Of a DNA stretch of 64,000 nucleotides, positions 58,317 through 64,000 are shown one piece after another; the stretch's first letter is position 1, and each line of letters opens with the position of its first letter. This DNA is from Capsaspora owczarzaki ATCC 30864. Its lineage: Eukaryota; Opisthokonta; Filasterea. The position numbers were made by a program, and so were the translations under genes. The DNA lies in contig NW_011887301.1 of NCBI RefSeq assembly GCF_000151315.2, forward strand, positions 599,760 through 663,759. Direction: 5' to 3'. The notes beneath the pieces were generated by a model. That model ran no database searches. It worked only from the letters and a program-made list of their open reading frames with translations, and was not told the origin of the DNA.

Positions 58317-59508
58317 CATGTCCAGGTTGTTAGTTTTAGTTAGTTTGTTAGTTTTCACAACAGGGGATTTTCCCCATGTATATAATCTTAATTAAATTCA
58401 TCCCATCACGCAATATTGTCAGTTTGCAAAGTCGGCTGAAGCAGGGTAAGGCGGTGTTTTGGAATTTTCGTTCACAAGTCTCTTTCTTCCATGCGCCCCA
58501 GCTGTCCTTGTGTTGGATTCGCCCCTCAATTGCACTGCAATATTCAGGCGAAAGACTCACTGATATCCGTCCCGCAAGTGAAATACTCACTGGTATCCGG
58601 TAGTTGATGTTTGATTTGTACTTTAATTCCACATCCGCGCTCGGGGGTGAATGGTTTTTTTTTATAAGTGTTGGCTCGTTTCGGTCCTCCGTGGCGAGCT
58701 CGTAGCGATGATATGTTTCCACACAAGGCTCTGACCAACGAAGCAAAGCAAGTTGCTTTCCTTGATCGAAGGTGGTGGTGGGCTGATCACTTCTGTTATT
58801 GTTTGTTTGGGTTTTTTGAGCCGCTCTTTTGTGGTTTCCAGCAACAGTAAGCCAGAAAAGGCGCAGCGCATCGTCAACCCCCACCCAAGAAGCAAGCAGT
58901 CTCGTCGCTTCTTTTTGGATTGTCTCGCCTCCTTGTGTTCGAAGTGATCCGTGGTGGCGCATCGCGAACAGTCCGCAACCAGCATGGAAACGAGCAGGGT
59001 GCGAGTTTTGGCGCAGGCCAGGTGGATTGCGCCCGCGTTCCCTCCCTGCACTCCTTCTCTGTCTCGCTCCCCTCTGGTGCGCCTTGTTGGTGCGCCTTGT
59101 TGCTGCGAGCTGAATCAAACTCATGTTGACGAAGCGACAGAGCAGAAGGAGGCTGGCCTTGGAAGCAGCAGAACCAAAAAAAAAAAAAAAAAAAAAAAAA
59201 CACTCCGCACTTTCAATCAACGGTATTGCCGCCTCTTGGTCCTTTGTCCCCCTGGGAGGGGGGGGGCCTCCGTATCTCTCCAAGGCGCATTGCATCACAT
59301 ACACACTGGAACCAGAGTCAAGAAGCGCGCTTTGGACAGAGGAGGCAGACAAGCAGCACGCTTCAGCTAAAGTTCGCCCGCTCGTCTTCAATTGAACACA
59401 AATCCATACATCCCCCACCCCGTCTGGCCTTCACTTCATGCAGTGGTTGTGGAACAGTGGCAAACTCACTCTCTGTCCATGCCTGTTTTTTGATTCACTT
59501 TTTGAAAG
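58317..59508. other. Intergenic region RBR / LRR gene
   Basis: 1.2 kb. A minus-strand frame of 356 codons (58348-59418) exists, but it runs through a homopolymer (poly-Phe), has no recognisable domain and overlaps similar long frames on the other strand; I treat it as chance. An A-run of about 26 (59177-59202) and a G-run (about 59258-59267) are present. Confidence 0.5.
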
Positions 59509-62500
59509 ATGACGCCAAAGGGGTTTGCCTTTGGACTGCTGCTGGTGGTGCTGCTTTGCGTGGTAAATCGCGCCCAGTTGGCCCAGGCAGTCAATGCATG
59601 CGACCCGGGCGTGTGCGCGTGCACGGGAGTGACTGTCAATTGCCAGAACAAAGGTTTCACAGCCATTCCAAGCGGAATTCCAGTCAACACCACGCAGCTG
59701 TACGTGTTCCCGTTGAGATGACCTTGAGTTGAAGCAACTCACTGGCATACAATCCCAAAAAAGGTATCTGCAGTCCAACTTGATCACCAACATCCCGGCA
59801 AGCGCATTCACAGGCCTGACTGCGCTGCAGGTCATGTAAGCAAGCAAAAAACGAAAAAAAAGGAAGAATCACGCACACAACCTGCTCACTCATTTTTGCG
59901 GCACTTTGATCTGTAGATACCTGACTTCCAACCAGATCGTCAGCATTTCCAGCGGCGCATTCTCAGGCCTGAGTGCGCTGACTTACGTGTAAGCAAGCAA
60001 AGGCAGGAAGAGTCGCACACTCAAGTAGCTCAACTCTCTTTGTACAGCTCTCTGTTCAACAACCTGATCACCAGCATTCCCGACTCCCTCTTCGCTGACC
60101 TGACTGCGCTGACTTACCTGTGAGCAAGCAAAACAGGAAGCATCACAAACAAAAAAAACCGCTCACTCGTTTTGCGACTGTATCTGTAGAGGTCTGCACG
60201 GTAACCTGATCACCAGCATGGCCGCAACTGCCTTCACCGGTCTGAACGTGCTGACACGATTGTAAGCAAGCAAAGACAGGAAGAATCATGGAGGCCAAAC
60301 GACTCACCTCGTGTGCGACTCTGTTGGAAGGGATATGTACTCCAACCATATCACCAGCGTCTCCGCCAACACATTCGCAGGCCTGAGTGCGCTTACTTAC
60401 CTGTAAGCAAGCCAAGTCATGAAGAATCACGCACGAATGGCTCACTCGTTTGTGGTTCTATCTGCAGGAGTTTATACGGCAACCAGATCACAAGCATTTC
60501 TGCAAACGCATTCTCAAACCTGCCTGCGCTGACCACCTTGTAACCAAGCAAAGTCAGGAAAACCCCCAAGCACAACACGGCTCACTCGTGTGCGCCTCAA
60601 TTTGTAGGGCTTTGTACGATAACCAGCTCACCAGCATTCCCGCGGACGCATTTACAGGCCTGAGCGCGCTGACGGAGTTGTAAGCAAGCAAAAGCAGGAA
60701 GAATCAAGGTCCAAACGACTCACTCCTGACTCTATCTGTAGGACTCTGTATGACAACGAGATCACCAGCATTTCGGCAAATTCATTCACAAGCCTCCCTG
60801 CGCTGATTATCCTGTAAGCAAGCAAAGACTTGATGAATCGCACACTCACTCGCTCACTCACTCACTCACTCACTCACTCACTCACTCACTCACTCGCTGG
60901 CGACTCTATCTGTAGGAGCTTAGACAGCAACCGGATCACCGACATTTCTGCAAATGCATTCACAGGCCTGACTGCGCTGAATATCTTGTAACTAACGCAA
61001 AGACAGGAAACAAGCTAGCACAAACGGCTCACTCGTTTGCGACTCGATCTGTAGATATCTGAGCCACAACCAGCTCAGCAGCATTTCCGCGAACGCATTT
61101 ACAGGCCTGAGTGGGCTGGATTCCTTGTAAGCAAAGCACTGGGCATGGAAAGAATCCACGACAAATGGCTTACCCGTTTTGCGACTCTATCTGTAGGACC
61201 TTATTCAACAACGAGATCACCAGCATTCATGTAGACGCCTTTACAGGTTTGCCTGCGTTGACTTCCCTGTAAGCAAGCTGAGGCATGCAGAAGCACACAC
61301 AAAACGGCTCACTCGTTTGCGAACACTGTTTGCAGATATCTGCAATCCAACCTGATCACCAGCATTCCTCCCTTTGTATTCACAAACTTGACTGCGCTGC
61401 AAATCCTGTAAGCGAGCAAAAATAGGAAGAATCGCACACCAGACAACTCATCACTCGTTTGCGACTCCATCTGCAGAGTTCTGGCCTACAACCAGATCAC
61501 CGGCATTCCCGCAAACGCATTCACAGCAGACCTGGCTGCACTGAATTATCTGTAAGCAAGCAGAGACATGAAGAATCACGTACACACGGATTACATGTTT
61601 TGTGACTCGCGTTGTAGGGATGTATCCGAAAACCAGGTCACCAGCATTCCTGCAAACGCATTCGCAGGTCTGCATTCGCTGAGTTCCTTGTAAGGAAACA
61701 AAGAAACAAAGAAGTGAAGAATCACACACAAACGACTCACTCGTTTGCGGCGCTATATTTGTAGGTTTCTGCAAGGCAACCAAATCACTAGCATTCTCAC
61801 CTCTACATTCCAAGGCCTAACTGCGCTGACTCACCTGTATGCAAGAACACTTAATGCACGTTCTCCATTCACCTCTCACTTCAAGTTACTGTTAGGATTT
61901 TGTCTGACAACCCTTTCACCACCTTGCCACCTGGCCTGTTCAAGGGCTTACCGAATGGCTTGATTTTGTCACCGCCCACGCTACTGTATATGAGCCCGAA
62001 CAACTTTACCTTTGGTGAGAACACTGTCGCGCCGCCCAGCACTTACGGCAGTGCATCCGAGCCATACCGTAAGTCTGAGAGTTGACTGCCAATCCCCATA
62101 AGATCATTTAGAAGCATTTTACTGACTTTTTTTTTTTGCACTTCAGAGTGTGACACGGTTTGCGGCACCTGCTATGCCGCTGGGTCCGATGCGTGCTGCC
62201 CGAGCAATTGCCTGATCTGCACGTCATCGTCTGTGTGCACGCAGTGCTCTGAAGGTGCTATGATGGTGAGCGGATCATGCGTCTCGCACGCTTGTGGCGC
62301 TGGCGGCTTGTGCACTTGCTCGGGAACGACTGTCGATTGCCAGAACCGTTCTCTCACCGTCATTCCAAGCGCAATGCCAAGTAACACGCTGACGGTGTAA
62401 GTGTTGCCGCCGAGTTGATCTCAGATGGAAACGTTGCCCAGCTGACTGGTGCACGGTCGATAGGTATCTGCAAGCCAACCAGATCACCAGCATTCCTGCC

Positions 62501-64000
62501 TCTGCGTTTGCAGGTCTGAGTGCGCTAACGATTCTGTAAGCAAGCAACGACTTGAGAATCAAGCACAGACAGCTCACTCGTTTGATACACACTACCTGTA
62601 GAATTATGTTCAACAACAAGATCACCAGCATTGATACAGACGCATTCACAGGTCTGACTGCGATGTCACAATTGTAAGCAAACAAAAGACATGAAGAGTC
62701 ACGCCGAAATGGCTCACTCATCCGCTTTGTTCCTATCTGTAGGAATCTGCAAGACAACAATCTCGCCAGCATTCCCGCCTCGGCCATTGCAGGTCTCACT
62801 GCGTTGAAATTCTTGTAAGCCAGCAAAGCCCTGACTGACGAGATAACACACAAACGGCGGTTCACTCGTTGGTGACTCCATCTGTAGAGATCTGTCCAAC
62901 AACAAGATCACCGACATTTCCTCCTCTGAGTTTACGGGCCTGACTGCGCTGAATTACCTGTAAGCAAGCAAAGACACAAAGCATCGCACACAAACAGCTC
63001 ACTCGTCGTTGGCGACACAATTTGTAGATGGCTGAATAGCAACAGGATCACCAGCATTTCTGCGAACGCATTCACAAGCCTGCCTGCGCTGGCATTCGTG
63101 TAAGCGAGCAAAGACTAGAAGAGTCACACAAACAGCTCACTCGTCGTTGGCGACACAATTTTTGTAGCTGGCTGAGAGCAAACTGGATCACCGCCATTTC
63201 TGCTAACGCATTCGCCGGCGTGACTTTGACATACCTGTAAGCAAGCAAGCAAAGAAAAATCATACAGAATGACTTGCCTCATTTGTGCCTCTATTTGTAG
63301 GGATCTGCAAAACAACCGGATCACCAGCATTCCAGCCAACGCGTTTACAAGCCTGACTGCGCTGAATACACTGTACGCAAGCACTCTCTCGTTCATTGCA
63401 CCTACGATTTGCCTCTCTTACCATGCGGTACTTGCAGGACTTTGAACGACAACCCCTTCACCACGTTGCCCCCTGGTCTGTTTAAGGGGCTGCCAAATGG
63501 CATGGTTTTGTCGGTGGCTTTCTCCCAATATCTGAGCCCCAACAATTTCACCTTTGGTGGAAACACTGACGCTCCGCCGAGCACATACGGCAATGCATCC
63601 CTTCCTTACCGTACGTTCCGCCTTGACTGGACTGCACCTGTGATCATTTTTGACTGACATTTTTGTACCGCAGCGTGTGATACAGTCTGTGCCACCTGCT
63701 ATGCCGCTGGGTCTGGCGCGTGTTGCGCGACCAATTGCTTGACCTGCACTTCGTCCGCTGTCTGCATTCAGTGCTACGAGGGCTATGGCATGATGAGTGG
63801 ATCCTGCGTCCCGCTCGCTTCGATCGCTTCAGTCGCTTCCATCGCTTCAGTCGCTTCTGTCGCGTCTGTCGCGTCCACACAATCCGCCTCGGCTGCTTCG
63901 ATTGCCTCGACCAGATCTGCATCGATTGCGTCCGGCGCCTCAATCGTATCGGCCTCGGTTGCTTCTGATGCGACAGCTGCAACAAAAGCATCCATCGCCT
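59509..64000 (+). CDS. Secreted or surface LRR protein, one LRR per exon (3' end missing)
   Basis: Starts with a signal peptide (GFAFGLLLVVLLCVVNRAQLAQA) and an LRRNT-like cap (CDPGVCACTGVTVNC). Exon 1 is 59509-59699. Array 1: 15 LRR exons from 59764-59835 to 61765-61836. Cap exon 61896-62068 (DNPFTTLPPGLFKGLPNG). Exon 62147-62396 has a Cys-rich segment (CDTVCGTCYAAG, CCPSNCLICTSSSVCTQC) and a second LRRNT-like cap (CTCSGTTVDC). Array 2: seven LRR exons from 62464-62535 to 63301-63372, then cap exon 63438-63610 and a second Cys-rich exon from 63674. Repeats are 24 residues, LxxNxITSIxANAFxGLxAL, one 72-nt exon each (61477-61551 has 75, 63168-63236 has 69); all array introns are phase 2. A Ser/Ala repeat tract runs off the window. 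A receptor kinase or adhesion protein is possible; the end is not visible. Confidence 0.85.
59764..63372 (+). repeat. Tandem LRR exon-plus-intron units
   Basis: Twenty-two units of about 140 bp in two blocks (59764-61836 and 62464-63372). Exons are 72 nt. Introns almost all begin GTAAGCAAGCAAAGAC or a close variant, have GGAAGAATCACGCACAC in the middle, and end GGCTCACTCGTTTGCGACTC followed by a short tract and TGTAG or TGCAG. Confidence 0.9.
60845..60895. repeat. (CACT)n microsatellite in an LRR intron
   Basis: About twelve ACTC/CACT units with one GCTC variant, expanded from the CTCACTCG motif that all introns of this gene carry. Confidence 0.9.

What the first reader, a model, noticed from the sequence alone, without database searches (positions are those of the whole stretch)
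59509..63372. LRR gene built of interchangeable exon cassettes with near-identical introns
Each of 22 LRRs is one exon, all flanking introns share phase 2, and the introns resemble one another as strongly as the exons do. Any exon can be skipped, duplicated or lost without a frame change, and the similar introns invite unequal crossing-over. That is a plausible way to diversify the binding surface of a secreted or surface protein, in concept like lamprey VLR cassettes. Whether diversity is actually produced is speculation.
Basis: partly seen in the sequence, partly recalled or inferred. Interest (0 to 1): 0.75.

Follow-up and report, generated by a model that had tools for sequence, protein, structure and literature searches.

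The report
LRR receptor kinase with exon cassettes
A single-celled organism, probably a close relative of animals, carries a family of cell-surface sensor kinases whose ligand-binding halves are strings of one-repeat exons, and sister genes show such exons being gained while the likely binding face changes faster than its frame.

Summary
The anatomy is real. 22 LRR exons (15+7; 20 of 72 nt, one 75, one 69) lie between phase-2 introns, and the introns are as alike as the exons (0.67 vs 0.65; shuffled introns 0.54), though not near-identical. The gene runs past the window into a membrane stretch and a complete tyrosine-kinase domain: a 1402-aa LRR receptor tyrosine kinase. It belongs to a family in this 27-Mb genome (probably Capsaspora): 22 loci read, 388 LRR cassettes, 5-45 per locus. 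Kinase motifs follow in 11 of 22; others end in tyrosine-rich tails. Sister genes show turnover: one has an exact 138-bp one-cassette tandem duplication the other lacks; another array repeats 1225 bp at 98.9%, twelve cassettes apart. The six most variable codons are those of the LRR concave face, changing at or somewhat above the neutral rate, while frame and kinase are conserved. The same 72-nt phase-2 plan is known from brown-algal ROCO genes. Nothing here supports VLR-like somatic assembly; splicing could not be tested.

The parts
59509..59699 (+). exon 1: start, hydrophobic leader, first LRRNT-like cap
   Evidence: Pfam LRRNT 2 stretches, best at 538-557; leader and first cap judged by eye
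59764..59835 (+). LRR exon 1 (72 nt, phase 2-2)
59917..59988 (+). LRR exon 2 (72 nt)
60048..60119 (+). LRR exon 3 (72 nt)
60190..60261 (+). LRR exon 4 (72 nt)
60331..60402 (+). LRR exon 5 (72 nt; acceptor TGGAAG, weak by eye)
60468..60539 (+). LRR exon 6 (72 nt)
60608..60679 (+). LRR exon 7 (72 nt)
60742..60813 (+). LRR exon 8 (72 nt)
60916..60987 (+). LRR exon 9 (72 nt); the 102-nt intron before it holds a CTCA run
61055..61126 (+). LRR exon 10 (72 nt)
61197..61268 (+). LRR exon 11 (72 nt)
61336..61407 (+). LRR exon 12 (72 nt)
61477..61551 (+). LRR exon 13 (75 nt)
61618..61689 (+). LRR exon 14 (72 nt)
61765..61836 (+). LRR exon 15 (72 nt)
61896..62068 (+). closing exon of LRR block 1, LRRCT-like (173 nt; ends in phase 1)
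   Evidence: DNA 128 of 188 aligned columns identical to 63438-63610; cap role judged by eye
62147..62396 (+). Cys-rich exon running into a second LRRNT cap (250 nt)
   Evidence: Cys part 108 of 140 columns identical to 63674-63811; Pfam LRRNT best stretch 538-557
62464..62535 (+). LRR exon 16 (72 nt)
62602..62673 (+). LRR exon 17 (72 nt)
62743..62814 (+). LRR exon 18 (72 nt)
62888..62959 (+). LRR exon 19 (72 nt)
62987..63023 (+). 37-nt stretch of intron 19 repeated exactly in intron 20 (63125-63161), a sign of local copying
63028..63099 (+). LRR exon 20 (72 nt); a 91% copy with flanking intron pieces lies alone on contig C12
63168..63236 (+). LRR exon 21 (69 nt)
63301..63372 (+). LRR exon 22 (72 nt)
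63438..63610 (+). closing exon of LRR block 2, LRRCT-like (173 nt; ends in phase 1)
63674..64000 (+). first part of a 1520-nt exon: second Cys-rich module and start of the Ala/Ser/Val stalk. The exon continues past the window to about 65193 (stalk, membrane stretch, tyrosine-bearing segment, most of the kinase), then exons 65275-65350 and 65421-65662 (stop)

Best explanation
The locus is a single-pass LRR receptor tyrosine kinase: leader, LRRNT, 15 LRRs, cap, Cys-rich linker, LRRNT, 7 LRRs, cap, Cys-rich module, Ala/Ser/Val stalk, membrane helix, tyrosine-bearing segment, tyrosine kinase. It is one of a large family of receptors that share this ectodomain plan and carry either the same kinase or a kinase-less, often tyrosine-rich tail. 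Shown from sequence: each LRR is a symmetrical phase-2 exon; cassettes have been gained in sister genes, singly and in longer stretches; residues on the predicted concave face vary far more than the frame; the kinase stays about 90% identical. Inferred: a ligand (microbe, host, prey or self molecule) binds the concave face and a common phosphotyrosine output follows, so that germline gain and loss of cassettes plus point change keeps producing receptors with new binding faces on a constant signalling end. Exon skipping might add variants but was not shown.
For: Gene model and protein. Pfam LRR_8 E 1.3e-136, PK_Tyr_Ser-Thr E 8.2e-86, LRRNT E 2.4e-8. Best solved relatives of the first LRR block: acid-labile subunit, LRRC15, LGR4, TLR3. 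Family: 388 cassettes in 22 loci, 382 of 72 nt; kinase motifs in 11 of 22 loci (my reading). Gain: L011/L012; L032 1225 bp at 98.9% twelve cassettes apart, and 8 listed cassette pairs identical in exon and following intron; L032/L033/L034 with 45, 39 and 35 standard cassettes, of which 33 and 34 pair up between neighbours in the comparison. Binding face: the six most variable of 23 positions are 1, 3, 4, 6, 22, 23 in both the family (382 exons) and the focal gene (20). In 41 disjoint close pairs chosen by introns, concave pN 0.073 against scaffold 0.009, with pS 0.057 and 0.069, Fisher p 2e-10. Kinase: 8 of the 11 genes (those my pattern caught), 28 pairs, mean 90.3% aa identity, pN 0.054, pS 0.411.
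Against: No ligand, expression or splicing data. Concave pN exceeds pS significantly in one of three collinear comparisons (L032/L033 p 0.02; L033/L034 p 0.27; L011/L012 has 0 concave nonsynonymous changes in 6 pairs), and two of the three share L033, so relaxed constraint on exposed residues is not excluded. The concave set was fixed after seeing the focal table, though it equals the textbook xxLxLxxNx positions (recalled). Focal cassettes are old relative to one another. The single membrane helix and leader were judged by eye. Gains could be assembly artefacts.
Confidence: 0.78

Rival explanations
1. Ordinary tandem-repeat gene: the LRR exons and their introns arose by old tandem duplication, the exposed residues drift under relaxed constraint, and nothing is selected for diversity. 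Similar introns only record shared ancestry.
For: Among 8 kinase genes, synonymous distance is the same for kinases between genes (0.411), cassettes between genes (0.411) and cassettes within genes (0.411; focal 0.396), as expected if arrays and genes are of one age or synonymous sites have levelled off. Concave pN/pS is near 1 in most comparisons. Within-gene and between-gene identities hardly differ (introns 0.640 vs 0.624, exons 0.665 vs 0.644).
Against: Concave pN exceeds intron distance in two of three collinear comparisons (0.072 vs 0.041, p 0.006; 0.089 vs 0.053, p 0.003; the two share L033). Recent cassette gains show the arrays are still changing.
Confidence: 0.3
2. Combinatorial splicing system: symmetrical cassettes are skipped or included to give many receptor isoforms per gene, as reported for brown-algal ROCO genes.
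For: The array introns are phase 2, so skipping a cassette keeps the frame. If the species is Capsaspora, 191 exons with less than full inclusion are reported there, and genes with differential skipping are enriched in protein-kinase activity, tyrosine kinases included (PMC3870316, passages). L033 has one 68-nt cassette that would break the frame if included, in a gene whose kinase exon is open.
Against: No RNA was available; that paper's main text does not hold the term LRR and its supplement could not be read. The L033 cassette may mark a dying gene or an assembly error. By eye the splice sites look uniform and mostly strong.
Confidence: 0.25
3. VLR-like somatic assembly, or gene conversion from silent donor cassettes.
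For: One solitary 159-bp piece, 91% identical to focal exon 20 with flanking intron pieces, lies with no other cassette in the 3.5 kb read, beside another kinase gene. Introns 19 and 20 of the focal gene, and this piece, share a near-identical stretch.
Against: The germline gene is complete and open; only one donor-like piece was seen, without a systematic search for more; the APOBEC_N search was empty, but so were its controls, so it decides nothing.
Confidence: 0.03

Closest known systems
Brown-algal LRR-ROCO genes (Zambounis 2012, not read; Teng 2024, PMC11378527, abstract and passages seen)
   Same: One LRR per 72-bp exon in phase 2, 23 codons inside the exon; exon shuffling; positively selected sites on the concave face; proposed as immune receptors.
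   Different: ROCO proteins carry ROC-COR GTPase domains; the focal protein has LRRNT caps, a membrane stretch and a tyrosine kinase, and no ROC or COR hit. Splice variants are reported there, untested here.
Tetrahymena 90-bp-exon LRR genes (PMC6564038, passages seen)
   Same: Uniform LRR exon arrays, phase-2 introns, exon number varying from gene to gene, unequal crossing-over proposed, some fused to a 'PK' domain.
   Different: 90 bp, not 72; linked to a retrotransposon; the terms 'concave' and 'positive selection' do not occur in its main text.
Gonadotropin-receptor / LGR genes
   Same: LRR-sized exons with phase-2 introns (stated in PMC11378527, passage); LGR4 is among the closest solved LRRs.
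   Different: Seven-helix receptors with a fixed, old set of LRR exons (recalled).
Lamprey VLR
   Same: Hypervariable residues on the concave LRR face (recalled).
   Different: VLRs are assembled somatically from cassettes flanking an incomplete gene (recalled); here the germline gene is complete.
Capsaspora LRR kinase CAOG_004404 (PMC6993872, passages seen)
   Same: A kinase with several N-terminal LRRs is mentioned there.
   Different: No exon structure, family or variation is described in the passages seen; whether it belongs to this family was not tested.

Membership tests
Receptor tyrosine kinase | complete tyrosine-kinase domain with catalytic motifs | tested here: met
   PF07714 residues 1114-1386 over profile 2-258 of 258, E 8.2e-86; HRDLAARN and DFG in the translation
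Receptor tyrosine kinase | leader and one membrane-spanning segment between ectodomain and kinase | tested here: inconclusive
   a hydrophobic leader and a hydrophobic stretch followed by RRRR are visible; no dedicated predictor was run
Receptor tyrosine kinase | ligand-induced kinase activity | not testable with these tools
   needs biochemistry
Brown-algal-type LRR exon-shuffling genes | one LRR per 72-nt phase-2 exon | tested here: met
   20 of 22 focal LRR exons; 382 of 388 in the family (the finder admits 69, 72 and 75 nt only; three 66-nt and one 68-nt cassettes were seen besides)
Brown-algal-type LRR exon-shuffling genes | diversifying selection on the concave face | tested here: inconclusive
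   concave far above scaffold; above the synonymous rate in one of three collinear comparisons
Brown-algal-type LRR exon-shuffling genes | ROC-COR GTPase domains | tested here: not met
   no such family in the Pfam scan of the whole protein
Brown-algal-type LRR exon-shuffling genes | alternative splicing of the LRR exons | not testable with these tools
   no RNA data
Tetrahymena 90-bp LRR genes | exons of exactly 90 bp | tested here: not met
   69, 72 or 75 nt
Tetrahymena 90-bp LRR genes | association with a LINE-like retrotransposon | not tested
   no search made
Lamprey VLR | incomplete germline gene completed from flanking cassettes | tested here: not met
   open reading frame through all 29 modelled exons
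Lamprey VLR | AID-like cytidine deaminase | tested here: inconclusive
   PF08210 0 hits, controls also 0
LGR/gonadotropin receptors | seven-helix domain | tested here: not met
   a kinase follows the ectodomain; no 7TM family in the Pfam scan

The most novel reading that the evidence does not exclude
A unicellular relative of animals keeps an immune-like or kin-recognition repertoire of phosphotyrosine-linked receptors: dozens of LRR ectodomains diversified by germline turnover and exchange of one-repeat exons, under selection on the binding face, split into kinase receptors and kinase-less tyrosine-tail receptors, with exon skipping adding isoforms and lone cassettes acting as spare parts.
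Probability: 0.3. Interest if true: 0.85.

Novelty: new variant of a known kind. Interest (0 to 1): 0.62.

Why it matters
One-LRR-per-72-nt exons with phase-2 borders are known from brown algae, and similar arrays from Tetrahymena. Finding the plan on tyrosine-kinase receptors in a probable filasterean, beside kinase-less receptors with tyrosine-rich tails, suggests that fast-evolving, phosphotyrosine-coupled recognition exists outside animals, and that this exon design for LRR diversification arose or was kept in several lineages. It makes a concrete question testable: do unicellular relatives of animals hold variable receptor repertoires, and against what?

Tried and rejected
Looked for hybrid (mosaic) cassettes: a first strict scan of L032-L034 found none. 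A scan of 341 cassettes found 2 with a gain of 8 or more and at most 4 unexplained differences, which by the table are L014 no. 3 and L021 no. 10 (gains 23 and 12); 99 of 341 had a gain of 8 or more, mostly with many differences left; the column-shuffled control (258 draws) reached at most 11 and is not a strict null.

Tested whether focal cassettes are recent whole copies of each other: no. Tested whether introns are more conserved than synonymous sites: in intron-chosen pairs 0.029 vs 0.057-0.069 (biased by the choice); in collinear pairs 0.041 vs 0.027-0.041 and 0.053 vs 0.064-0.073, so no clear excess constraint.

A kinase-like motif in L027 was dropped by eye as out of frame. My pattern found no membrane segment in L012, L026 and L034, and the L011 hit is spurious. 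The kinase comparison caught 8 of 11 kinase genes; L011, L012 and L026 did not fit the pattern. The first cassette table counted 341 exons, including LRRCT starts and isolated false hits; one search replaced it with array members only. The fold of the protein was not predicted, because the tool takes window proteins read letter for letter and this one is spliced.

Papers: Zambounis 2012 and the Capsaspora genome paper are not held. The listings of those pairing Capsaspora with LRR or leucine-rich terms show no title about these arrays; the only texts opened were PMC3870316, PMC6564038, PMC11378527, PMC10232365, PMC6993872 and PMC9621439, in passages (one abstract), so 'not in print' is not claimed.
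Full report
WHAT IS THERE. The window ends inside a gene. Reading on into the same contig, exons can be joined from the ATG at 59509 to a stop at about 65662. The model has 29 exons and gives 1402 aa without an internal stop. Order: hydrophobic leader, LRRNT, 15 LRRs, closing cap, Cys-rich linker, second LRRNT, 7 LRRs, closing cap, second Cys-rich module, Ala/Ser/Val-rich stalk, hydrophobic membrane stretch followed by RRRR, a segment with repeated tyrosines (YQEA, YAVV, YATV), and a tyrosine kinase with HRDLAARN and DFG. Pfam agrees on LRR_8, LRRNT and PK_Tyr_Ser-Thr; leader, stalk, membrane stretch and caps were judged by eye. The two blocks with their caps look like an old duplication: cap exons 128 of 188 aligned columns identical, Cys modules 108 of 140, LRRNT parts 76 of 116. 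Splice sites are inferred from sequence; no RNA was seen.

THE OBSERVATION. [quoted passage not shown] 20 of 22 are 72 nt, one 75, one 69. Mean pairwise identity over all columns is 0.672 for the 20 introns between cassettes (0.536 when shuffled with ends kept) and 0.653 for the 20 exons of 72 nt; over non-gap columns the introns give 0.806 against 0.754 shuffled. Fourfold sites are 0.68 identical against 0.27 expected from composition. Introns and exons share ancestry to a similar degree, but 'near-identical' is too strong. One local exception is a 37-nt word shared by introns 19 and 20; the next longest among 190 pairs is 21.

THE FAMILY. The window lies in a 27.46-Mb genome of 29 contigs. 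A 485-bp piece of the array gave 200 matches on many contigs, with only 40 of 74 candidates scored; two intron words gave 327 and 223 hits against 23 and 4 for reversed controls. I read 22 array loci: 388 LRR cassettes, 5 to 45 per locus, 382 of 72 nt, 3 of 69, 3 of 75. A locus may be cut at its ends. The finder admits only those three lengths; gaps in the arrays hid three in-frame cassettes of 66 nt and one of 68 nt. By my reading, kinase motifs follow the array in 11 of 22 loci (L009, L011, L012, L013, L023, L026, L028, L029, L030, L032, L033). Ten others (L014, L017-L022, L024, L025, L027) have the membrane stretch but no kinase that I could read. In six of these (L014, L017, L018, L022, L024, L025) the tail read is 115-212 aa long with 6-13 tyrosines in recurring motifs (YEDV, YADP, YATV); the L022 tail runs to the end of the stretch. 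In the other four the frame after the membrane stretch is short (16-64 aa, 0-1 Tyr), and for L019 a similar tyrosine-rich piece follows in another frame, so introns may hide more. L034 showed neither in the stretch read. The genome has 34 SH2 matches, so readers of such phosphotyrosines exist.

WHICH ORGANISM. A small genome with 176 matches to PF07714 (a profile that also covers serine/threonine kinases, counted exon by exon), T-box (6 matches at about four places) and integrin-beta (6 matches on 4 contigs) fits the filasterean Capsaspora owczarzaki (recalled profile; n = 16 chromosomes in PMC10232365, passages). This is an inference.

CASSETTES ARE GAINED. (a) L011 and L012, both on contig C1, are 99.4% identical over an 876-bp stretch and less so elsewhere. 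L012 carries one cassette twice in tandem; the alignment shows a 138-bp insertion relative to L011, with both ends of the copied unit in introns and no substitution between the copies. Reading frame and splice sites persist. (b) L032 has 45 cassettes; 1225 bp, about nine cassettes, recur 1629 bp or twelve cassettes further on at 98.9%, and 8 of its listed cassette pairs are identical in exon and following intron. (c) Its relatives L033 and L034 on contig C16, L033 near the contig end, have 39 and 35; array alignment pairs 33 (L032/L033) and 34 (L033/L034) and leaves cassettes unpaired on both sides. (d) Hybrid cassettes in L014 and L021 match one neighbour on the left and another on the right, changing over at exon nt 46-47, as in-register unequal crossing-over would leave. 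So recombination uses exons as well as introns. (e) A lone 159-bp piece, 91% identical to focal exon 20 with intron pieces, lies on C12 with no other cassette in the 3.5 kb read. (f) One L033 cassette is 68 nt and would break the frame unless skipped.

WHERE THE VARIATION SITS. Of 23 codons per cassette, the six most variable are 1, 3, 4, 6, 22 and 23, in the family (382 exons) and in the focal gene (20) alike. These are the exposed positions of the LRR beta-strand on the concave face (textbook LRR geometry, recalled; the set was fixed). In 41 disjoint close pairs chosen only by introns, concave pN is 0.073, scaffold pN 0.009, pS 0.057 and 0.069 (Fisher p 2e-10). In collinear cassettes of sister genes, paired by exon order and similarity, concave pN is 0.072 against intron 0.041 (p 0.006) and against all synonymous sites p 0.02 for L032/L033; 0.089 against intron 0.053 (p 0.003) and synonymous p 0.27 for L033/L034; L011/L012 has no concave nonsynonymous change in 6 pairs. 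The first two comparisons share L033. The concave face therefore changes at or somewhat above the neutral rate; positive selection is likely but not proven, and recombination weakens such tests. Kinases of 8 of the 11 genes average 90.3% aa identity with pN 0.054 and pS 0.411 (28 pairs). In those genes synonymous distance is equal for kinases between genes and for cassettes between and within genes (0.41), so gene spread and array growth may be of one age, or the sites have levelled off.

HOW IT MOST LIKELY WORKS. A constant phosphotyrosine output sits behind a modular, changeable sensor. Cassettes are symmetrical, so duplication and loss keep the frame; the concave residues then diverge. This is shown for relatives and inferred for the focal gene, whose own cassettes are old: among array cassettes read, the three nearest neighbours of 18 focal cassettes reach at most 0.83 exon identity, the lone C12 piece being closer. 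Ligand and role are unknown: microbes, the snail host, prey or self are all possible.

SPLICING. For Capsaspora, 191 exons with less than 95% inclusion in some stage are reported, 29 of them differing between stages, with enrichment of protein-kinase genes (PMC3870316, passages). Whether LRR cassettes are among them could not be checked; short reads would also map poorly to such arrays.

NOVELTY. Brown-algal ROCO genes share the 72-bp phase-2 single-LRR exon, concave-face selection and splice variants (PMC11378527, abstract and passages). Tetrahymena has 90-bp arrays (PMC6564038, passages). A Capsaspora kinase with LRRs is mentioned in PMC6993872 (passages), and a review finds no obvious Toll-like receptor in that species (PMC9621439, passages). 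What I did not find in the listings of my ten searches is this exon design on receptor tyrosine kinases, with a kinase-less sister class, in a unicellular relative of animals. Hence 'new variant of a known kind'.

Noticed in passing
L014, L017, L018, L022, L024, L025 (contigs C2, C3, C3, C4, C4, C5): Receptors with the same LRR-cassette ectodomain and membrane stretch but no kinase read; their tails carry 6-13 tyrosines in recurring motifs (YEDV, YADP, YATV), like docking receptors.
   Followed up: partly
L031:1096-1254 (C12:510095-510253): A solitary cassette, 91% identical to focal exon 20 with pieces of both introns, no other cassette in the 3.5 kb read, on the opposite strand to a neighbouring kinase gene.
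   Followed up: partly
L033, reverse strand, between its cassettes 31 and 32 (about C16:4600-4790): A 68-nt LRR cassette that would shift the frame if included, in a gene whose kinase exon is open.
   Followed up: partly
C16:1200-53000, C18:156000-168005: Related arrays lie near contig ends (C16 start, C18 end) with recurring signatures, suggesting segmental copies near chromosome ends.
   Followed up: partly
window 62987-63023 and 63125-63161: Introns 19 and 20 of the focal gene share an exact 37-nt word, far longer than any other of 190 focal intron pairs (next 21), a sign of local copying.
   Followed up: partly
window 60814-60915: The intron before LRR exon 9 is 102 nt long and holds a CTCA simple repeat where the other introns have a single CTCAC motif.
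   Followed up: no
window 59176-59200 and about L010:1507-1541: Long A and T homopolymer runs upstream and downstream of the gene.
   Followed up: no
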